A stretch of 64,000 nucleotides of DNA from an uncultured Olsenella sp. Lineage in GTDB: Bacteria; Actinomycetota; Coriobacteriia; Coriobacteriales; Atopobiaceae. This document shows, piece after piece, positions 37,658 to 46,938 of the stretch. The translations under genes and the position numbers were made by a program. The stretch is taken from contig OMVJ01000014.1 of assembly GCA_900314495.1 (NCBI GenBank), positions 1-64,000 of the forward strand. Direction: 5' to 3'. Numbering within the stretch: position 1 is the first letter of the stretch; every line of letters begins with the position of its first letter. The notes below the pieces were generated by a model. It ran no database searches, was not told the DNA's origin, and saw nothing but the letters and a program-made list of their open reading frames with translations.

Positions 37658-38221
37658 CTAGACGCGGGAGACGAACTTGCCGGTGCGGGTGTCAACCTTG
37701 ATGCGCTCGCCCTGGTTGAGGTACATGGGAACCTGCACGGTTGCGCCAGTCTCCACGGTTGCGGGCTTGGTGCCACCCTGAACGGTGTCACCCTTGAAGC
37801 CGGGGTCGGTCTGGGTGATCTCCACCTCAACGAAGATGGGAGGATCCACCTCGTACAGCACGTCGTTAGCGTACTGGAGCAGGCAGGTGTCGTTCTCCTT
37901 CATGAACTTGGCGTTGTCGCCGATGAGGGCCTCCTCCACGGGAATCTGCTCGTAGGTCTCGGAGTCCATGAACCAGTAGGCGTTACCGTCGTTGTACAGG
38001 TACTGCATCTCGCGCGTGCGCATGTTCACGCTCTCGAAGTGGGCAGACTGCTGGAAGTTCTCCTCGTTCACACGGCCGGTACGGATGTCGCGATACTTGG
38101 TGCGCACGTAGGTGTTGCCCTTGCCAGGCTTGACGTGCTGCGCCTCCAGAATGATGCAGTCCTTGCCGTTGATGTTGACGCCAAGGCCCTTCTTAAGATC
38201 GGTGATGCCCAGAGCTGCCAC
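37658..38221 (-). CDS. efp: Elongation factor P
   Basis: Relieves ribosome stalling at polyproline. Three-domain EF-P: GITDLKKGLGVNINGKDCII, the loop HVKPGKGNTYVRTK with the conserved lysine at its tip, and a C-terminal OB domain ending RIKVDTRTGKFVSRV. 187 residues from a GTG at 38221, with AAGGAG 6 nt upstream. No modification enzyme is next to it. Own promoter and terminator. Confidence 0.95.
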   Translation of the reverse strand: MAALGITDLKKGLGVNINGKDCIILEAQHVKPGKGNTYVRTKYRDIRTGRVNEENFQQSAHFESVNMRTREMQYLYNDGNAYWFMDSETYEQIPVEEALIGDNAKFMKENDTCLLQYANDVLYEVDPPIFVEVEITQTDPGFKGDTVQGGTKPATVETGATVQVPMYLNQGERIKVDTRTGKFVSRV

Positions 38222-38276
38222 GAAAATCTCCTTCACTTGCGCCCACGGGGTGGGCGAGAAAACACATACGAGGGAT

Positions 38277-38282
38277 AGTATA
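38277..38282 (-). promoter_or_regulatory. -10 box of efp
   Basis: TATACT on the minus strand, about 56 nt before the GTG. A GCCCAC/GTGGGC hairpin lies in the leader at 38241-38255. Confidence 0.5.
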
Positions 38283-38331
38283 GTCCAATGCTGCCACTGC
38301 ACGCGACCGCCAACGAAGGTCCACATCCGGC

Positions 38332-38736
38332 TCAGTTCTTGCGCTGGAACACGTCCTTCAGCTTGCCGCCGTAGAACTTTGCCACGTCCACCATGTTCTG
38401 GGACCTGAGCAGGCGGTCGGCGGGAACGTGCTCCCTAATGGCCCGCAGCGTAGCCTTGTTGTCCCGAGTGGAGAAGGCATAGTGGCCGTTGTGCAGCGTG
38501 AAGACCACCCAGCGGTTGATCCTCTTCCCCACCACCGAGGCGGAGATGTAGTCCACCTCCGTCCAGGGTATCTGGATGTAGTCCTTGGCGTTCTTCTCGT
38601 TGTAGTACTCCAGGGCCTTGTTGCCCACCTGCATGAAGCCGAATGACCCAAGCCCCAGGAAGGATTGGGCCTTCACCTCGTACTCTACCTGGTCGTTCTG
38701 CGATGGCGCAGCCTCTTGTCCGGTGACCAGTCTCAT
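38332..38736 (-). CDS. manO: ManO/DUF956 family protein of the mannose PTS operon
   Basis: A 134-residue protein with the DUF956 pattern VEYEVKAQSFLGLGSFGFMQ, YIQIPWTEVDYISASVVGK and FSTRDNKATLRAI. DUF956 genes follow mannose PTS operons in Firmicutes and are thought to modulate the transporter (related to ManO). CGGAGG lies upstream of the ATG. It is separated from manZ by a strong hairpin, so expression may be lower than that of the transporter. Confidence 0.88.
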   Translation of the reverse strand: MRLVTGQEAAPSQNDQVEYEVKAQSFLGLGSFGFMQVGNKALEYYNEKNAKDYIQIPWTEVDYISASVVGKRINRWVVFTLHNGHYAFSTRDNKATLRAIREHVPADRLLRSQNMVDVAKFYGGKLKDVFQRKN

Positions 38737-38755
38737 AGAAACCTCCGTTGGAATG

Positions 38756-38790
38756 AAAGTGGGTCGCACCCGCCAGGGGATGCGACCCAC
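38756..38790 (-). terminator. Intercistronic terminator/attenuator between manZ and manO
   Basis: Minus-strand GTGGGTCGCA-N12-TGCGACCCAC then TTTCATT. A 10-bp perfect stem with a modest T-run; partial readthrough into manO is likely. Confidence 0.75.
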
Positions 38791-38826
38791 TCAGAGTAAA
38801 CCGCTACAGCGGATTACCGCAAGGCA

Positions 38827-39744
38827 TTACATGAAGCCGAAGAAGCGGCCGCAGATACCGACGGCGAACAGCGCGAGGATGATCACGATCGGGGAGACGT
38901 TCTTCTTCAGCAGCCAGCAGCAGAGCATGGTCAGGCCGACGGCGGCCAGGCCAGGAACCAGCTGGTCCAGGTTGCCCTGAAGGGTGGTCACCTTTGCCTG
39001 GTTCAGGCCGGTTGCGCCGAGGGAGGCGTACTGCTCGAGGGCAGACTTGATGCCCTCGGTACCAGCGGGCAGGGCATCCCAGTCAATGTAGGCGCCCTCA
39101 GACTGCTGCACGGTGGAGACGACCGGGGTGAACTTGATGGACACCCAGCGCTCGACCAGTGCGCCGATGATGAACATACCCAGGATGGAGGCACCCTCGG
39201 TGATCTTGCCCAGCATGCCGCCGGAGAGGTCCTTGGCGATGGAGGTACCCACGTTGTAGCCAAACTCCTGCGTGTACCACAGGAAGGCCATGCGGATGAT
39301 GTTCCATGCGACGAAGAACAGGATGGGGCCGACGATGCTGCCGGAGAGGGCCATAGAGGCACCAAGGGCACCAAGGATCGGGCGGATGGTGAACCAGAAG
39401 ACGGGGTCGCCGACGCCGGCGAGCGGGCCCATCATACCGACCTTGACGCCCTGGATGGCGGCGTCGTCGACGGCGGCACCGTTGGCACGCTCCTCCTCAA
39501 GGGCGAGCGTGACGCCGATGACGGGGGCGGAGACGTACGGGTGCGTGTTGTAGAACTCCAGGTGACGCTTCAGGGCCGCGGACTGGTCCTCCTGCGAGGA
39601 GTACAGAGCCTTGATCGCGGGGATCATTGCGTAGCACCAACCGCCGTTCTGCATACGCTCGTAGTTCCAAGAGCCCTGCAGGAACTGGTGGCGCCACCAA
39701 ACAGCCAAACGGGTCTGCTTGGAAAGCTTGATTTCTTCTGCCAT
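38827..39744 (-). CDS. manZ: PTS mannose-family EIID membrane component
   Basis: Membrane partner of EIIC in mannose-family sugar uptake. EIID hallmarks: RHQFLQGSWNYERMQNGGW, AIKALYSSQEDQSAALKRHL, FYNTHPYVSAPVIGVTLALE and KVGMMGPLAGVGDPVFWFTI. Several membrane helices, especially residues 140-200 and 265-300. 305 residues. Confidence 0.96.
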   Translation of the reverse strand: MAEEIKLSKQTRLAVWWRHQFLQGSWNYERMQNGGWCYAMIPAIKALYSSQEDQSAALKRHLEFYNTHPYVSAPVIGVTLALEEERANGAAVDDAAIQGVKVGMMGPLAGVGDPVFWFTIRPILGALGASMALSGSIVGPILFFVAWNIIRMAFLWYTQEFGYNVGTSIAKDLSGGMLGKITEGASILGMFIIGALVERWVSIKFTPVVSTVQQSEGAYIDWDALPAGTEGIKSALEQYASLGATGLNQAKVTTLQGNLDQLVPGLAAVGLTMLCCWLLKKNVSPIVIILALFAVGICGRFFGFM

Positions 39745-39773
39745 GTTTTCACACTCCTTAGTGGCTCAGGGAT

Positions 39774-40595
39774 TTACTCGTAGTCGTTCAGGATGTCGCC
39801 CAGCGGGTCGGCAGAGCCGCCGCCGTTGCCGGAGCCAGCCTGCTCCTTGGCGTAGTCCTTGAGACCAAGGTAGATGAGGGCAAGGCAGACGCCGATGACA
39901 CCAAGGGCGATGAGCGTGAGCTGGGAGATGGCAGCGACAACGAAGCCGAGGGCGAAGAAGGGCCAGGTCTCGTTGGTGGCCATCATGTTGATGACCATGG
40001 CGTAGCCGACTGCGGCGACCATGCCACCGCCGACGGCCATGCCGCCGGACAGCCATGCGGGCATGGCATCCAGGACGGCCTTGACGGCGTCAGCGGGGAT
40101 GAAGCACAGGGCGGCAGCGGGGACGGCGATGCGTACGCCCTGCAGGCAGATGGCAGCGATCTGGATGGCGTCGATGGTACCCATCTTGTCCTGCTCGGCC
40201 GCGGCGTCCATGGCGTGGACCATGGGGATTGCGATGGTACGGACGAGCATGGTCAGGAAGAGGCCAGCGACGGACAGGGGCACTGCCATGGCGATGGAGG
40301 TGTTGATTGCGGTGGTGGCGTCAGCGCCGGTGTTGAGGGCGATGACCATGAGGATTGCGGAGGCAACGGAGGCGAGGGCCGCGTCAGGGGCGACGGCGGC
40401 GCCGACGTTTGCCCAGCCAAGCGCGATCATCTGGAGCGAGCCGCCCAGCATGATGCCCTCAGTGGGGTGACCGGTCACGATGCCGATGAGCGTGCACGCA
40501 ACCAGCGGCTGATGGAACTCGAACTCGTCGAGGATGCCCTCCATGCCAGCGAGGAAGGCAACGAGCACAACGAGAATTACGTTGAAAAATGGCAT
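39774..40595 (-). CDS. manY: PTS mannose-family EIIC membrane component
   Basis: Sugar-conducting channel part of the mannose-family PTS. FHQPLVACTLIGIVTGHPTE and GIMLGGSLQMIALGWANVGA with AVAPDAALASVASAILM are classic EIIC motifs. Multiple membrane helices; cytoplasmic C-tail with Gly/Asn-rich stretch. 273 residues. Between manX and manZ. Confidence 0.96.
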   Translation of the reverse strand: MPFFNVILVVLVAFLAGMEGILDEFEFHQPLVACTLIGIVTGHPTEGIMLGGSLQMIALGWANVGAAVAPDAALASVASAILMVIALNTGADATTAINTSIAMAVPLSVAGLFLTMLVRTIAIPMVHAMDAAAEQDKMGTIDAIQIAAICLQGVRIAVPAAALCFIPADAVKAVLDAMPAWLSGGMAVGGGMVAAVGYAMVINMMATNETWPFFALGFVVAAISQLTLIALGVIGVCLALIYLGLKDYAKEQAGSGNGGGSADPLGDILNDYE

Positions 40596-40610
40596 TTTTT
40601 CCCTCCCCTG

Positions 40611-41618
40611 TTACTGGTTCTGAGCGGCGAGCTCGGACTTGGCCTTGCTGATCATGCTGTCGAAGTTCTCCGGCGAGTCCGCGGGGACCTTGCGCACGTC
40701 GAACTCCACGCCATGGGCCTTGATCTTCTCGAGCGTGTCGATGTCCTCGGGACCCATTGCGATTGCGTTGGTCACGACGACCTTGCCGACAGAGTGTGCC
40801 ATGGAGCCCAGGTTGACCTTCTTGATGTCAACACCGCCCTCGATGGCGCGGAGCAGATCCTGCGGGGTCTCGAACAGGAGCATGGCCTTGGTGGCACCAA
40901 AGCGCGGGTCCTTGGAGACCTCGATGATCTTGCTGACGGGAACGACGTGGGCCTTGACTCCTGGAGGCGCGGCCTGCTCGATCATGGACTTGCGCAGGTC
41001 GTCGTGGGCGACTGCGTCGGAGCACACGATGATGCGGTCCGGCTGGGTCATCTTGGTCCACGTGGTCGCAACCTGGCCGTGGAGCAGACGGGTGTCCACG
41101 CGGGCAAGCACAATCTTGATGTGGCCGTCGCCCAGGACGGTTCCCGGCGGGATGCTGCCCGTGGGCACCGCAGCAGGCGCCGCAGCGGGAGCCGCCGCAG
41201 CGGCATCCTCGGGCTGGAGGCTCTCCGGCTTGACCTTCACGCCAGCCTTTGCCTCGGGGTAAATCTCTTGCGCGACAGCGACCGCCGTATCGGCCCCCAT
41301 ACGAGCCCCGTAGGCCGAGACAAGCATGGGCAGGCTGAGGCCGGTGACGGCGACCCAGTCTTCCTTCTTCTCCTCGTCGAGGATGCGGGAAATCTGGTTG
41401 AACGGGGTGCCACCCCACAGATCGACGAGGAACAGAACGTGCTCCTGGTCGTCAAAGGTGGCAATTGCATCGAGCAGCTTCTTGTGCATGTCGTCAGGGC
41501 CCATGTCAGGCGTGAGCACGACTGCCGCGACGTTCTCCTGCGGTCCGAAGATCATGCTGCCCGACTCCTTGATGCCCGCGGCGAACGCGCCGTGGCTTGC
41601 CAGAACAATGCTTACCAT
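40611..41618 (-). CDS. manX: PTS mannose-family EIIAB fusion
   Basis: Carries phosphate from HPr to the incoming sugar. EIIA domain (about 1-130) with phospho-His9 in VLASHGAFAAG and DLWGGTPFNQIS; an Ala/Pro-rich linker (about 138-160); EIIB domain with the second phospho-His in RVDTRLLHGQVATTW. 335 residues. First gene of the operon manX-manY-manZ-(manO), read from its own promoter. Confidence 0.96.
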   Translation of the reverse strand: MVSIVLASHGAFAAGIKESGSMIFGPQENVAAVVLTPDMGPDDMHKKLLDAIATFDDQEHVLFLVDLWGGTPFNQISRILDEEKKEDWVAVTGLSLPMLVSAYGARMGADTAVAVAQEIYPEAKAGVKVKPESLQPEDAAAAAPAAAPAAVPTGSIPPGTVLGDGHIKIVLARVDTRLLHGQVATTWTKMTQPDRIIVCSDAVAHDDLRKSMIEQAAPPGVKAHVVPVSKIIEVSKDPRFGATKAMLLFETPQDLLRAIEGGVDIKKVNLGSMAHSVGKVVVTNAIAMGPEDIDTLEKIKAHGVEFDVRKVPADSPENFDSMISKAKSELAAQNQ

Positions 41619-41897: not shown

Positions 41898-43022
41898 CTA
41901 CTCCCCCACTATTTGTAGCTCGTGGGTGGACTGCGTGAAGCGCTCGTAGCCCTGCTCGGTCATCACACCAAAGTCCTCTATGCGCACTCCAAAGCGGCCA
42001 GGGAGGTAAATGCCAGGCTCGTCCGTGATGACGGCACCCACGGGAATCTCCCCCGTGTACCTGCGGCCAAAGTAGGGCATCTCGTGAATCTGCAGGCCAA
42101 CGCCGTGGCCAAGGCCGTGCTTGAAGTAGTCACCGTAGCCGGCGTCCGTGATGGTCTTCACGGCCAGGTTGTGGATGTCCCTGCCAATGCAGCCAGGCTT
42201 GGCGGCCTGGCCGCAAACCTCGTTGGTGTGACGCACAATGTCGTACACGCGGCGCTGCTCCTCCGTAGGCTGGCCCACGCACACGGTGCGCGTCATGTCG
42301 GAGTGGTAGTCGTGGTAGCCGGCGCCGTAGTCCATGACAATCATGTCCCCGGGCTTCACCACGTAGTCGCTGGGACGGGCGTGGGGGTTGGCACCGTTGG
42401 GACCCGCAGCCACGATCGTCTCGAACGAGAGGGCGTCCGCCCCGTGCGAGAACATGTAGTTCTCCATCTCGTTCTTGATCTGCATTTCGGTCATGCCAGG
42501 CTTGATGTAGCCGCAGATGTGGGTGAAGGTGGCGTCGGTTATGCTCTGCGCGTGGCGCATGAGCTCAATCTCCTCGCTGTCCTTCACAATGCGGAGCTTG
42601 GCTATGTCCTCGTGCATACGGGGCAGCATGGGGGCCACGGACGCCTGCGCAAGCTCGTGGCAGAAGTCCTCGTAAAAGGCCAGCGTCAGCGAGTCCTCAA
42701 CGGCAACCACGCGGGACCGCGCCTCCACGACGCGCTGGGCAGTCCAGTAGGCGGGCTCCACAATGTCCATGTCAATCTTCCAGAGGGTCGCGTCGCCCAT
42801 GCGGTCCAGGAACATGCCGTAATAGCGCGAGTCAGTGTGCAGCCACAGGGCATCCGCGGTAACGAAGGCCGTGTGGGCCACCTCGTCGTCGAAGACCCGC
42901 TGCGCCCCGGTCAGCCACCTAAGGTCGGGGTTGTTGCGAATGACCACGGCATCGTAGCCGCGCTGGTCCATGAGGGCGCGCAGGCGCGCGACCCTCTCCA
43001 CGTACACGCTCATGTCTGGCAT
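41898..43022 (-). CDS. M24 metallopeptidase (Xaa-Pro aminopeptidase/dipeptidase)
   Basis: Creatinase-like N-terminal domain (VIRNNPDLRWLTG) and a pita-bread catalytic domain. The two-metal site is intact: Asp pair in MDYGAGYHDYHSDMTRTV, His in GHGVGLQIHE, Glu in TDEPGIYLPG and Glu in VRIEDFGV. Likely cleaves Xaa-Pro bonds in the cytosol; aminopeptidase (PepP) versus prolidase (PepQ) cannot be told apart here. 374 residues from the ATG at 43022 (GGGAG upstream). Confidence 0.92.
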   Translation of the reverse strand: MPDMSVYVERVARLRALMDQRGYDAVVIRNNPDLRWLTGAQRVFDDEVAHTAFVTADALWLHTDSRYYGMFLDRMGDATLWKIDMDIVEPAYWTAQRVVEARSRVVAVEDSLTLAFYEDFCHELAQASVAPMLPRMHEDIAKLRIVKDSEEIELMRHAQSITDATFTHICGYIKPGMTEMQIKNEMENYMFSHGADALSFETIVAAGPNGANPHARPSDYVVKPGDMIVMDYGAGYHDYHSDMTRTVCVGQPTEEQRRVYDIVRHTNEVCGQAAKPGCIGRDIHNLAVKTITDAGYGDYFKHGLGHGVGLQIHEMPYFGRRYTGEIPVGAVITDEPGIYLPGRFGVRIEDFGVMTEQGYERFTQSTHELQIVGE

Positions 43023-43096
43023 GCTTTCTCCCATCGGGTCGCAGGCTGCGGCCCCACTCCTCTTTGCGTCACTTTACGGATGACGCCCTGCAGGCA

Positions 43097-44215
43097 CTAC
43101 TCCGTCGCCGCCTCCGTCGCATGTGCGGAGCACCAGGCGTCGGTGTGCTCGCACAGCAGGTCGTCGTCCACCGCCGTAAGCCTCACGCGGCCTATTGCCT
43201 GCGGAAGCTCCAGCATGAAGCGGTTGGTGCGACGGAAGCACTCCTCCCTCAGCGCCTGGCGCATCAGGCCTGGCTCCACGTCGCAGGCGGGCGTCTGGCC
43301 CAGGCCCAAGGCCTCCAGCAGGTCGTCCTGGGCAAACACGTCGTCCACTGGCAGCCTGCCCATGCCGGCAGACACGCGGGCGAAGAAGCGCAGGCCCTCC
43401 GCCAACAGCATGGAGGCGGGGACGCCCGCGGGAACAAGCGGCCTCATCGCACGCACGAACGTGCTCCCGTACGAGACGGACTGGCGCAGCGCAATGGAAG
43501 TGCTGGAGACCAGCCTGCCACGGCCCTTGACGCAGTCCCCCAGAACGGTGACGAGTGCCTGCACGTCTCCCGCCATGAGGTCTTCCGCGTTGTCCCACAG
43601 GCGCGAGAACTCCTTCTCGCCCGCGGCCATGGCCGTCGCCACCATGATGCCGCGTGCCAGGCGCGAGGTTTCCGCATCCTCATCGCGAGAAACCACGTCG
43701 GTATCGCAGAACATGCGACGGCAGGAGGGGCGCCCCTTCACCATCTGCGGCAGGCCGGCGCAGTCCAGCGCCCGCGGCGTTGCGGCAGACTCCACGAAGG
43801 CATCCAGGTCCATGGGGTACAGGGCAAGCGGCATGCCGCCGCACCACACGTCGCAGGCGAAGGAGGCAACGGACAGAAGGCCGACCGAGCCCGCGGCAAA
43901 CACCACGTCGTCCTTGGTGATGTGGGCATGGCCCATGGCGGCAAGGAGGCCGGTGGCGCTTTCCATGCATGGTTCCTGGGACTCCGAGACCCAATCGGTG
44001 ACCTTGTAACCGCCGCCGATGAGCCCCCGGCGCACCAGAACCAGCACGTCCTCCGGCAGGTCCGGCCCATAAACCAGCAGGCAGCGGGGGTCCTTGCCAC
44101 TCACACCCCGCATGAAGGTGGAAATCTGGTCCGTCGCGCCCGCGCCGATGCGCACGTCCACGGAGCCACCGGGGATGGATACCCATTGCCTCGCGATATC
44201 GGGTCCGTCCGTCAT
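43097..44215 (-). CDS. Degenerate 3-dehydroquinate synthase (AroB)-like protein
   Basis: The 372-residue protein keeps the AroB layout and the position behind aroK, but the active site is gone. The NAD-site block GGGVVGDLAGF is AAGSVGLLSVASF; the DSSVGGKTG motif is MDLDAFVESA. The region of GHTFGHALE reads YGSTFVRAMRPL, and HGEAVAIG reads PASMLLAEG, so both metal-ligand histidines are missing. The Glu of GEVIKYG is replaced too (RGIMVATAM). Dehydroquinate synthesis is therefore unlikely. ATG at 44215 overlaps the aroK stop (ATGA). Possible roles: structural partner of AroK or a new function. Homology to AroB is inferred from pattern and synteny. Confidence 0.7.
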   Translation of the reverse strand: MTDGPDIARQWVSIPGGSVDVRIGAGATDQISTFMRGVSGKDPRCLLVYGPDLPEDVLVLVRRGLIGGGYKVTDWVSESQEPCMESATGLLAAMGHAHITKDDVVFAAGSVGLLSVASFACDVWCGGMPLALYPMDLDAFVESAATPRALDCAGLPQMVKGRPSCRRMFCDTDVVSRDEDAETSRLARGIMVATAMAAGEKEFSRLWDNAEDLMAGDVQALVTVLGDCVKGRGRLVSSTSIALRQSVSYGSTFVRAMRPLVPAGVPASMLLAEGLRFFARVSAGMGRLPVDDVFAQDDLLEALGLGQTPACDVEPGLMRQALREECFRRTNRFMLELPQAIGRVRLTAVDDDLLCEHTDAWCSAHATEAATE

Positions 44216-44751
44216 AGAAGGCCCTCCTCCCACAGCAGGCTCCCCGCTTCCTGGGCAACCTGGCCAAAGTCCTTGTTCCTGATGTTGATCACGTAGTCCG
44301 CAACCTGGGCGAAGAGCGGACGCCTGTGCTCGTACAGCTTGCGGGCCTCCTCGACGGTGCGGAAGTCGGGGCGCTTCTCGGGGTGCTGGATCTGCCGCAG
44401 GGAGTCCTCAAGCGAGCCGTCAAGGTACACGACAACACCCATCTCGTGCATGAGGTCGCAGTTGGCGGGCCGCTCCACAATGCCGCCCCCGCAGCTTACC
44501 AGCAGGGACTTGCTCCCCCGCAGACGGCGCAGCACCTCCGTCTCCGCGTCGCGAAACGCAGCCTCGCCATCCTCGCAGAAGCACTGGCTGACCGACTTGC
44601 ACAGCAGGCGCTCCGCCATGCGGTCCGTGTCCACATAGCGCCGACGGTACAGCCGCCCCAGGTTCCTGGCCAGCGTCGACTTGCCCGCCCCAAGGAACCC
44701 TACGAAGAAGATGTGATCGCACCCGTCGTGAGTGATGTACCCCTCTGTCAT
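44212..44751 (-). CDS. aroK: Shikimate kinase
   Basis: Phosphorylates shikimate with ATP. P-loop FFVGFLGAGKSTLARNLG (about 15-32), DTDRMAE for shikimate binding, FRDAETEVL, SCGGGIVERP and the lid REHRRPLF-like EHRRPLFAQVAD. 179 residues, complete. Downstream of mltG; translationally coupled to the AroB-like gene. Confidence 0.9.
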   Translation of the reverse strand: MTEGYITHDGCDHIFFVGFLGAGKSTLARNLGRLYRRRYVDTDRMAERLLCKSVSQCFCEDGEAAFRDAETEVLRRLRGSKSLLVSCGGGIVERPANCDLMHEMGVVVYLDGSLEDSLRQIQHPEKRPDFRTVEEARKLYEHRRPLFAQVADYVINIRNKDFGQVAQEAGSLLWEEGLL

Positions 44752-44878: not shown

Positions 44879-46513
44879 CTAATCGGAAGTACTGGCACCG
44901 TTGACCGCATTCAGATGCTCGTCGTACGTCTCGGAGAACACGTGCTCGGAGTCCGTGATCCAGAAGTACAGGTAGTTGGTCTCTGCGGGCGCGAGCGCAG
45001 CCTGGACGGACGCCAGGCTGGGGCTGCAGATGGGCGTTGGCGGGAGGCCCTTGTACAGGTAGGTGTTGTAGGGGCTGTCGGTCTGGAGGTCGTCAGCCGT
45101 GACCTCCCCACCCGTCACATAGCCCATGGTCGCATCACTCTGCAGCGCCATGCCCGCCTTCAGACGGTTGTAGAAGACGGAGGCGATCTTCACCCTGTCG
45201 TCGTCGTTCAGGGCTTCCTTCTCGATGATGGAGGCAAGCGTAAGCACGTCATAGTCCGTCATGGTCACGCCGTACTGGTCCTTTATGGTGGCCTCCGCCG
45301 TAGCGAAGTCCAGCGATGCGACCTCGCTCTGGTACTGGTCCAGCATGGCGCGAATGGCGTCGTCCGCGGTGGGAGACTCCTTCGTCAGCTTGTAGGTCTT
45401 GCCGAAGAGGAAGCCCTCCAGCGAGTCGTCCTGCGCTGCCGAGAGGAAGGTGTAGTCGGCAGAATAGTTGGACGCCTTTGCCTGCGCCAGGAAGTCCTCC
45501 TGGGAGATTCCCAGCTGGTCGCTCAGGGTCTCCGCAGTCTTCTGCACCGTGAGGCCCTCCGCCACGGTAACCTGGCCCTTGGTGGAATTTGGCCCCGCAA
45601 CCAGCTGCTTCACGACGTCCGAGGCGTCGGACCCGGTCACGAAGTCGTACAGGCCGCTCTTCATGCTTGACTCGGCGCCCTGGGCCTGAACGGCCTTGTT
45701 GAAGTCGTTGCCGTTTGTGATGACGCCGTTCTCCAACAGGATATTCAGGACATCACGGCCGCTCGCACCGTCCGGAATCTCGATAGTGACATCCTGGCCC
45801 GGCTCCACGTCAGTCCTGGGGGCAATCTGATCTCCCAACAGGTAGCGACGGGCAACGAAGCCGCCGCCCGCAAGCACCACGGCAAGGATGACCAGCGTCA
45901 CCACCACCGCGCGGCGGGAGTACGAGTTCTTCTTCTGGGGGGCGGCGTGCTTGCCCGGAGCATTGCGGCGAGCCTTGGCCTGGGGTTGCGCGGCATGTGC
46001 GGCCCCGACTGCGGGGGTGGTACGCACCGCCTGGCTCGGACGCGCCGCCTTGACGGGACGAACGGCACCCGTAGCGCCCGAGACGGGCCTCGTGGCCTTG
46101 GTGCTTCCGGCCGACGGGCGGGCAGAACGCGCCTCTGCCGAGACGGGACGCGCCGAGCGCGTGGTACCAGTGGGACGCTGCTGCGTGCGCTGCTGGGGCC
46201 TAGACGCACCTTGGGAGGCCGCATGGCTGGACGCTTGCTGCCTTGAGGCCGCCTTGGGCTGACGCACCGCGCCACCCTTGGAGGCGGTTCCGCGCGCACC
46301 CTGAGCCACCCTGCCAGTTTGGGAATTCGCCAGGCGCACAGACCCAGTGGAACCCGCGGTGCCAGCCTGCTTTGGGCGCGTGGCCTGCCCTTGCTGTGCC
46401 GAGCGCCGCCTAGCGGGCTGCGGCTGGGACGTCCTTCTCTGTGCGCGGCCATGCTCCTGCGCCTCGCCCGAGAAGTGCACGCCCCCCTGCTGGTTTCCGT
46501 TGTGAGTAGCCAT
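44879..46513 (-). CDS. mltG: MltG-like endolytic transglycosylase with a long basic cytoplasmic region
   Basis: Cleaves nascent peptidoglycan glycan strands near the membrane. One membrane helix at about 201-220; then a LysM-like segment (VTIEIPDGASGRDVLNILLE) and the YceG/MltG catalytic domain with ASIIEKEA (catalytic Glu), IASVFYNRL, LQSDATMGYVTG, SPYNTYLYKGLPPTPICSPS and FWITDSEHVFSETYDEH. The first 200 residues are Arg/Ala/Gln/Ser-rich and disordered, with four imperfect repeats of about ten residues around ARPV/TRPV/VRPV (residues 120-160). Ordinary MltG has only a few tens of residues there. Downstream of ruvX, a common arrangement. Confidence 0.93.
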   Translation of the reverse strand: MATHNGNQQGGVHFSGEAQEHGRAQRRTSQPQPARRRSAQQGQATRPKQAGTAGSTGSVRLANSQTGRVAQGARGTASKGGAVRQPKAASRQQASSHAASQGASRPQQRTQQRPTGTTRSARPVSAEARSARPSAGSTKATRPVSGATGAVRPVKAARPSQAVRTTPAVGAAHAAQPQAKARRNAPGKHAAPQKKNSYSRRAVVVTLVILAVVLAGGGFVARRYLLGDQIAPRTDVEPGQDVTIEIPDGASGRDVLNILLENGVITNGNDFNKAVQAQGAESSMKSGLYDFVTGSDASDVVKQLVAGPNSTKGQVTVAEGLTVQKTAETLSDQLGISQEDFLAQAKASNYSADYTFLSAAQDDSLEGFLFGKTYKLTKESPTADDAIRAMLDQYQSEVASLDFATAEATIKDQYGVTMTDYDVLTLASIIEKEALNDDDRVKIASVFYNRLKAGMALQSDATMGYVTGGEVTADDLQTDSPYNTYLYKGLPPTPICSPSLASVQAALAPAETNYLYFWITDSEHVFSETYDEHLNAVNGASTSD

Positions 46514-46524
46514 GGTACATCCTT

Positions 46525-46938
46525 CTATGAGCGCCTGGCATCAAGCCAAGACTGCAAGAACAGCGAGGCAGCGACCATGTCCACCTTCCCACGCATATTC
46601 TTTTCGCTGAGGCCTTCCTCCCGAAGGATACGCTTGGCCTCTGCGGACGAGAGACGCTCGTCCCAAAACTCCAGAGGAAGACCGCAGGAGTCAGCTATGG
46701 AGCGCGCCTGGGTCATTACCCTCTGGGCTTGGGGGCCATCTTCCCCCGCCATGGTCTTGGGCCTGCCGCACACCAGAACGTCCGGCTCGTAGTCCTCCAG
46801 TACGCGACGGAAGGTGCGGGCTCGTTGCAACACCTCGTTGGCAGGGAGCACGCACACGGGGGAGGCAATGGACCCAGACGCATCGCTCACGGCAATGCCG
46901 ATGCGCTTCTCGCCTATGTCCAGAGCCAGTGCCCGCAT
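46525..46938 (-). CDS. ruvX: RuvX/YqgF family Holliday-junction resolvase-like nuclease
   Basis: RNase H-fold protein, 137 residues. LALDIGEKRIGIAVSD carries the first catalytic Asp; VCGRPKTMAGEDGPQA, FWDERLSSAEA and a C-terminal DMVAASLFLQSWL complete the active site. Family members act in rRNA processing or DNA junction cleavage. Between alaS and mltG in the conserved alaS-ruvX-mltG order. Confidence 0.95.
   Translation of the reverse strand: MRALALDIGEKRIGIAVSDASGSIASPVCVLPANEVLQRARTFRRVLEDYEPDVLVCGRPKTMAGEDGPQAQRVMTQARSIADSCGLPLEFWDERLSSAEAKRILREEGLSEKNMRGKVDMVAASLFLQSWLDARRS

What the first reader, a model, noticed from the sequence alone, without database searches (positions are those of the whole stretch)
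43097..44215. AroB-like protein that has lost its metal ligands, coupled to shikimate kinase
It keeps AroB length and synteny with aroK, but the GxGEVIKYG, GHTFGHALE and HGEAVAIG motifs are replaced (RGIMVATAM, YGSTFVRAMRPL, PASMLLAEG). The NAD and phosphate motifs are degraded too. It is a full-length, uninterrupted ORF overlapping aroK, so selection has kept the frame. That suggests a new role, such as an AroK partner.
Basis: partly seen in the sequence, partly recalled or inferred. Interest (0 to 1): 0.65.

Follow-up and report, generated by a model that had tools for sequence, protein, structure and literature searches.

The report
Conserved dead copy of dehydroquinate synthase
A gut and rumen bacterial group keeps, in nearly every species, a full-length but catalytically stripped copy of a shikimate-pathway enzyme that selection still protects even where the neighbouring kinase or the whole pathway is gone, so it must do some other, still unknown, job.

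Summary
The minus-strand ORF 44215-43097 (372 aa) has a confident DHQS (AroB) fold but has lost all three metal ligands, the NAD motif and 10 of 11 DAHP-pocket residues. It is not a broken aroB. The same genome has a canonical aroB in a complete aromatic operon, which also carries an AroE-AroK fusion. Orthologues ('psiDHQS') occur in 139 of 140 Atopobiaceae genomes, in Collinsella (Coriobacteriaceae) and in one sister family. The sampled members keep 2-5 of 20 catalytic/NAD positions, whereas 30 canonical AroBs keep 20 of 20. Outgroup Coriobacteriia carry a normal aroB at the same alaS-ruvX-mltG-aroK-aroB-pepQ-efp locus, so this is most simply the ancestral aroB, stripped after the operon copy took over. 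Purifying selection is clear (dN/dS about 0.05-0.2). The 'AroK partner' idea is weakened: 13 genomes in 7 genera lost the neighbouring aroK yet keep the protein under similar constraint, and a few genomes without a detectable shikimate pathway also keep it. However, aroK and psiDHQS show the strongest rate covariation, and one genome keeps only this pair. Best reading: a DHQS-fold pseudoenzyme with a non-catalytic binding or regulatory role; ligand and partner are unknown.

The parts
43097..44215 (-). psiDHQS CDS: 372-aa DHQS-fold protein without DHQS catalytic residues
   Evidence: translation; profile to DHQS E 4.8e-21; AF2 pLDDT 95.3; VIA-align Z 38.5 to DHQS 5eks
43646..43648 (-). codon of I190, at the place of metal ligand Glu (E187 of own AroB)
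   Evidence: alignment
43463..43465 (-). codon of S251, at the place of metal ligand His (H250 of own AroB)
   Evidence: alignment
43415..43417 (-). codon of A267, at the place of metal ligand His (H266 of own AroB)
   Evidence: alignment
43484..43522 (-). R232 to R244: the only DAHP-pocket positions still basic and conserved (K229->R, R243 kept)
   Evidence: R 0.85 and 0.95 in 40 orthologues; pocket list from PMC6262012
43385..43399 (-). E273-G-L-R276-F277: non-catalytic motif (AEGMRF) shared with aroK-linked AroBs, absent from operon AroBs
   Evidence: link 1.00, operon 0.00
44212..44751 (-). aroK, shikimate kinase with its motifs intact; overlaps psiDHQS by 4 bp (ATGA)
   Evidence: PF01202 E 8e-36; motif table
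41898..43034 (-). pepQ-type M24 Xaa-Pro peptidase, conserved downstream neighbour
   Evidence: PF00557 E 3e-67; synteny
44879..46513 (-). mltG, conserved upstream neighbour
   Evidence: PF02618; synteny
46525..46938 (-). ruvX, conserved upstream neighbour
   Evidence: PF03652
46969..49617 (-). alaS, conserved upstream neighbour
   Evidence: ORF; synteny
37658..38326 (-). efp (elongation factor P), end of the conserved cluster; here separated from pepQ by PTS genes
   Evidence: PF09285/PF01132/PF08207

Best explanation
The gene encodes a pseudoenzyme ('psiDHQS'). SHOWN by sequence: it is a complete DHQS-fold protein that lacks the residues by which DHQS binds the catalytic metal, NAD and DAHP. 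It sits at the ancestral aroB place of the alaS-ruvX-mltG-aroK-aroB-pepQ-efp cluster. It is conserved and under purifying selection across Atopobiaceae and Coriobacteriaceae, alongside a canonical aroB elsewhere. INFERRED history: the common ancestor gained or assembled a second, complete aromatic operon (DAHP synthase-tyrA-aroB-aroA-aroC-pheA-aroE/aroK). This relieved the cluster aroB of catalysis; aroE and aroC left the cluster, and the old AroB lost its catalytic residues but kept a second, non-catalytic property. INFERRED mechanism: a DHQS-like dimer acting as a binding or regulatory protein. It would use the helical C-terminal domain (E273/R276/F277, D297, H357, W361, residues already present in the catalytically intact cluster AroBs) and the remaining basic pair R232/R244, perhaps with an anionic metabolite as ligand. 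AroK may be one partner where present, but the core role needs neither that AroK nor, in a few genomes, the shikimate pathway. The stated confidence is for the whole; the pseudoenzyme part alone is about 0.95, the mechanism alone about 0.35.
For: Homology and fold. Catalytic loss: of 20 catalytic/NAD positions, 30 canonical AroBs keep 20/20 and 40 psi proteins keep 2-5; pocket residues taken from PMC6262012. Canonical aroB plus AroE-AroK fusion in the same genome. Universality: 139/140 Atopobiaceae, Collinsella, one f7 genome. Locus orthology: outgroup L075 holds alaS-ruvX-mltG-aroE-aroC-aroK-aroB-pepQ-efp, and Eggerthellaceae and termite Coriobacteriia hold canonical aroB there; 17 residues shared with linked AroBs only against 4 with operon AroBs only. 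One clade of hosts: pepQ tree 100*. Purifying selection: dN/dS 0.05-0.2, 0.15-0.19 in the aroK-less genus. No relaxation after aroK loss: psi/pepQ divergence ratio 1.8-2.7 against 2.05-2.8. Present without a detectable pathway: G034 (94% complete), G009 (86%), G042 (94%).
Against: No ligand, partner or phenotype is known, so the mechanism is inference. The tree alone does not fix where psi joins: psi grouped with operon AroB is not rejected (p-AU 0.39). Pathway-less genomes are drafts, and because the pathway is one contiguous operon, a single gap could remove it from G009 or G161. G034 and G042 psi are very divergent. G082 (98% complete) has no psi, so it is not strictly essential, unless that stretch is missing or withheld. 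dN/dS is a simple pairwise NG86 estimate in high-GC genomes and rises to 0.3-0.7 for distant pairs with saturated or biased dS.
Confidence: 0.6

Rival explanations
1. AroK partner: psiDHQS is a dedicated activator, stabiliser or scaffold subunit of the neighbouring AroK, produced by coupled translation.
For: ATGA overlap; adjacent in most genomes; strongest rate covariation of ten gene pairs, partial r 0.65; f7 genome G042 keeps aroK+psi without aroB, aroC or aroE; linked AroKs share a derived RPD lid motif in both psi-bearing families.
Against: 13 genomes in 7 genera lack that aroK and keep psi with unrelaxed divergence where measured; three of them have no detectable shikimate kinase at all; the linked aroK is redundant with the AroE-AroK fusion. 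The covariation permutation is not phylogeny-aware, and ruvX-psi is also high (0.51).
Confidence: 0.2
2. A new enzyme: the fold was repurposed, with a new active site built from the conserved Arg/Glu/Asp/Cys/Trp positions, acting on another substrate.
For: psi-specific conserved residues Q10, R63, W124, C125, R232, S238, R332, R345; two DHQS-pocket basic positions remain.
Against: No conserved metal-ligand set and no NAD motif; several of the most conserved residues are inherited from cluster AroBs rather than new; no match to any family of known different activity.
Confidence: 0.13
3. Prozyme: psiDHQS forms a heterodimer with the canonical operon AroB and activates or regulates it, like T. 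brucei AdoMetDC prozyme.
For: Both occur together in most genomes (133/140 over the aroB cut-off); DHQS is dimeric (PMC9074039).
Against: psi and own AroB are about 21% identical and appear to come from different AroB lineages; psi persists in G034, G009 and G042, which lack canonical aroB.
Confidence: 0.07
4. A decaying relic of aroB kept only by operon position or translational coupling.
For: It evolves faster than its neighbours (mean distance 1.28 against 0.36-1.03); catalytic residues lost.
Against: No broken copies seen: two apparent splits are N-run misassemblies. dN/dS is 0.05-0.2; 139/140 genomes; new conserved positions.
Confidence: 0.03

Closest known systems
3-dehydroquinate synthase (AroB, TIGR01357 / PF01761+PF24621)
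   Same: Length, whole fold (Z 38.5), profile homology E 4.8e-21, ancestral locus beside aroK
   Different: All three metal ligands, the NAD glycine motif and 10 of 11 DAHP-pocket residues lost; scores 19.9 bits against the 305 cut-off
Sugar phosphate cyclases (DOI synthase 2gru, EEVS 4p53, DDGS 5tpr)
   Same: Same fold (Z 31.8-35.3)
   Different: These are metal/NAD enzymes; the fit is no better than to DHQS, and psi lacks the metal and NAD motifs
Plant shikimate kinase-like SKL1/SKL2 (PMC2593004, PMC12203367)
   Same: Duplicate of a shikimate-pathway enzyme without the original activity, kept for another function
   Different: Kinase fold, plants, demonstrated phenotype
T. brucei AdoMetDC prozyme (PMC5201418)
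   Same: Catalytically dead paralogue kept by selection
   Different: Prozyme pairs with its active paralogue; psiDHQS persists in genomes without one
C. albicans Aro1 inactive DHQase domain (PMC9074039)
   Same: Dead shikimate-pathway module retained
   Different: Domain of a fusion protein in fungi; another enzyme of the pathway

Membership tests
3-dehydroquinate synthase (AroB) | DHQS fold over the full length | tested here: met
   AF2 model pLDDT 95.3; Z 38.5, 349 residues aligned to 5eks; profile E 4.8e-21
3-dehydroquinate synthase (AroB) | Metal ligands Glu, His, His | tested here: not met
   I190, S251, A267 in the window protein; the set is absent in the 40 psi orthologues aligned
3-dehydroquinate synthase (AroB) | NAD motif GGGxxxD and GE..K | tested here: not met
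   GSVGLLS; E76, K79 and D112 replaced
3-dehydroquinate synthase (AroB) | DAHP pocket residues (11 listed in PMC6262012) | tested here: not met
   only R244 kept, K229->R232
3-dehydroquinate synthase (AroB) | Score over NCBIfam TIGR01357 cut-off | tested here: not met
   19.9 against 305 bits
3-dehydroquinate synthase (AroB) | Catalysis DAHP -> DHQ | not testable with these tools
   needs assay
Sugar phosphate cyclase paralogues (EEVS, DOIS, DDGS) | Metal and NAD sites | tested here: not met
   same residues absent; no family hit
Pseudoenzyme (dead paralogue under selection) | Catalytic residues lost, fold kept | tested here: met
Pseudoenzyme (dead paralogue under selection) | Active paralogue in same genome | tested here: met
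   own aroB 340.8 bits on C39, 20/20 positions
Pseudoenzyme (dead paralogue under selection) | Purifying selection on the frame | tested here: met
   dN/dS 0.05-0.2
Pseudoenzyme (dead paralogue under selection) | Measured lack of activity and known non-catalytic role | not testable with these tools
   needs biochemistry
Obligate AroK subunit | Never kept without the neighbouring AroK | tested here: not met
   13 genomes in 7 genera keep psi without it

The most novel reading that the evidence does not exclude
The ancestral aroK-linked AroB of Coriobacteriia was bifunctional, with an unrecognised non-catalytic role in its C-terminal domain. When a second aroB took over catalysis, the old copy shed catalysis and became a clade-wide housekeeping protein independent of the shikimate pathway. 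A half-stripped copy in another family (L072, 14/20 residues) would show the same process under way a second time.
Probability: 0.3. Interest if true: 0.8.

Novelty: new variant of a known kind. Interest (0 to 1): 0.6.

Why it matters
Eight literature searches of the open library found no description of a retained pseudo-DHQS. Here one is fixed in two families of human- and animal-associated bacteria (Olsenella, Atopobium, Collinsella). Genomes exist for every stage: normal aroB at the locus, a half-stripped copy, a fully stripped copy with aroK, without aroK, and without a detectable pathway. That makes it a good natural series for asking how an enzyme turns into a non-catalytic protein and whether a hidden second function came first. 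Practically, annotation pipelines and metabolic models should not count it as aroB.

Tried and rejected
Relic or pseudogene: rejected (selection, universality). Split genes in Collinsella vaginalis L120 and G027 L070 looked like disruptions but carry runs of N, so they are assembly errors. Clean tree proof that psi comes from the linked rather than the operon aroB: the quick trees separate operon AroBs (99-100*), but an AU test does not reject psi with operon (p 0.39); the origin claim therefore rests on locus and shared residues. Looked for psi loss in G082 at contig ends: the cluster was not there, left open. Papers on Olsenella or Collinsella aroB, pseudo-DHQS: none relevant.

Full report
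What is there. The ORF lies on the minus strand, ATG 44215 to stop 43097, 372 aa. Its start overlaps the aroK stop as ATGA, so the two are probably translationally coupled. A single-sequence Pfam scan sees nothing at E<=1, and NCBIfam aroB gives 19.9 bits against a cut-off of 305. A profile of 29 orthologues (A1) finds DHQS structures (3qbd, E 4.8e-21). AlphaFold gives pLDDT 95.3 and pTM 0.93, and the model is a DHQS: Z 38.5, 349 residues, against about 26 for glycerol dehydrogenases.

What is missing. Against 30 canonical AroBs of the order, which keep all 20 catalytic/NAD positions, 40 psi proteins keep 2-5. The E, H, H metal ligands are I190, S251 and A267. GGGVTGD has become GSVGLLS. Of the 11 DAHP-pocket residues listed for M. 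tuberculosis and S. aureus DHQS (PMC6262012), only the Arg is kept (R244), and one Lys is a conserved Arg (R232).

Canonical genes elsewhere. The genome has a normal aroB on contig 39 (340.8 bits). It lies in an operon of DAHP synthase, tyrA, aroB, aroA, aroC, chorismate mutase-prephenate dehydratase and an AroE-AroK fusion. The window's aroK is thus also a second shikimate kinase; its motifs are intact.

Distribution. The family is Atopobiaceae by the names that came. psiDHQS is found in 139 of 140 genomes: one search counts 140 matches, but in G082 the match is the canonical aroB. It is also in Collinsella and relatives (f10) and one genome of a sister family (f7). A pepQ tree puts these hosts in one clade with 100* support. 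Outside that clade the same alaS-ruvX-mltG-(aroE-aroC)-aroK-X-pepQ-efp locus holds a canonical aroB (L075; L128, L129, L131, L132, L134, L136, L138).

Origin. Locus identity says psi is the ancestral cluster aroB. 17 positions are shared by psi and cluster AroBs but rare (0-17%) in operon AroBs, and 4 show the reverse. The trees separate operon AroBs strongly, but the AU test does not reject psi with operon AroB, so the tree alone is not decisive. In an outgroup family, G040 carries both an operon aroB and, at the mltG-X-pepQ place, a copy with 14 of 20 residues that has lost the metal Glu and one metal His (L072): an apparently independent, half-way case.

Selection. NG86 dN/dS of close pairs is 0.05-0.16, against about 0.02-0.12 for the linked aroK of the same genomes. 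It is a real gene, evolving faster than its neighbours.

Is it an AroK partner? For: overlap, adjacency, the best rate covariation (partial r 0.65), and an f7 genome that keeps aroK+psi without aroB, aroC or aroE. Against: G020, G021, G024, G036, G062-G067, G009, G011 and G034 (7 genera) have no aroK beside psi. In the seven loci read in full, a YqeG-like HAD phosphatase, with or without a type IV prepilin peptidase, sits between mltG and psi (families checked in two loci); the other six show no aroK in the stretch held. In the seven loci measured psi is not relaxed: the psi/pepQ divergence ratio is 1.8-2.7 against 2.05-2.8, and dN/dS is 0.15-0.19 within genus g20 for four of the six species. 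G034 (1.0 Mb, 94% complete) and G009 (86%) have no detectable kinase, aroC, aroE or canonical aroB. The protein therefore outlives both the neighbouring kinase and, apparently, the pathway; draft incompleteness tempers the second point.

How it may work (inference). The most conserved residues now are not catalytic ones. They are a C-terminal-domain set (E273, R276, F277, D297, H357, W361) already present in the catalytically intact cluster AroBs, a psi-specific set (Q10, R63, W124, C125, R332, R345) and the pocket pair R232/R244. The simplest reading is that the cluster AroB had a second, non-catalytic property; after the operon AroB appeared, only that property was kept. I commit to a dimeric binding/regulatory protein, ligand possibly anionic, partner unknown; the pseudoenzyme part is about 95% sure, this mechanism about 35%.

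Known parallels. Plant SKL1/SKL2 (PMC2593004), T. brucei prozyme (PMC5201418) and the dead DHQase domain of C. albicans Aro1 (PMC9074039). No paper on a pseudo-DHQS was found.

Noticed in passing
L072:5293-6396 (G040, outgroup family f5): AroB-like copy at the mltG-X-pepQ place that keeps 14 of 20 catalytic/NAD positions (metal Glu and one metal His lost) in a genome that also has a canonical operon aroB: an apparently independent, half-stripped case.
   Followed up: partly
L104:13985-15274 (own genome C39) and L062:11696-12976: Shikimate dehydrogenase-shikimate kinase (AroE-AroK) fusion ending a complete aromatic operon in Atopobiaceae and Coriobacteriaceae.
   Followed up: partly
L101:3059-3601 (G042, family f7): AroK with GDG in place of GGG in the shikimate-binding loop, beside psiDHQS, in a genome with no detectable aroB, aroC or aroE: perhaps a kinase with another substrate.
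   Followed up: partly
window 44212-44751 and orthologues: psi-linked AroKs of Atopobiaceae and Collinsella carry RPD(F/L) where outgroup AroKs have RPL(L/F) in the lid region.
   Followed up: no
L071:3556-4517, L080:7916-8985, L069:4030-5202: YqeG-like HAD phosphatase and type IV prepilin peptidase (PF01478) sit between mltG and psiDHQS in lineages without the linked aroK.
   Followed up: partly
window 38332-41618: Mannose/sorbose-family PTS genes (EIIAB, with membrane-protein-like ORFs between) inserted between pepQ and efp, which are neighbours in most relatives.
   Followed up: no
L120 (Collinsella vaginalis NZ_LT838843) and L070 (G027): Scaffolds with runs of N that scramble the alaS-mltG-aroK-psi order: misassemblies that mimic gene disruption.
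   Followed up: yes
G082 (genus g27): Only Atopobiaceae genome searched without psiDHQS (98% complete, 2 contigs); the cluster is not at the contig ends read. True loss or missing sequence is unresolved.
   Followed up: partly
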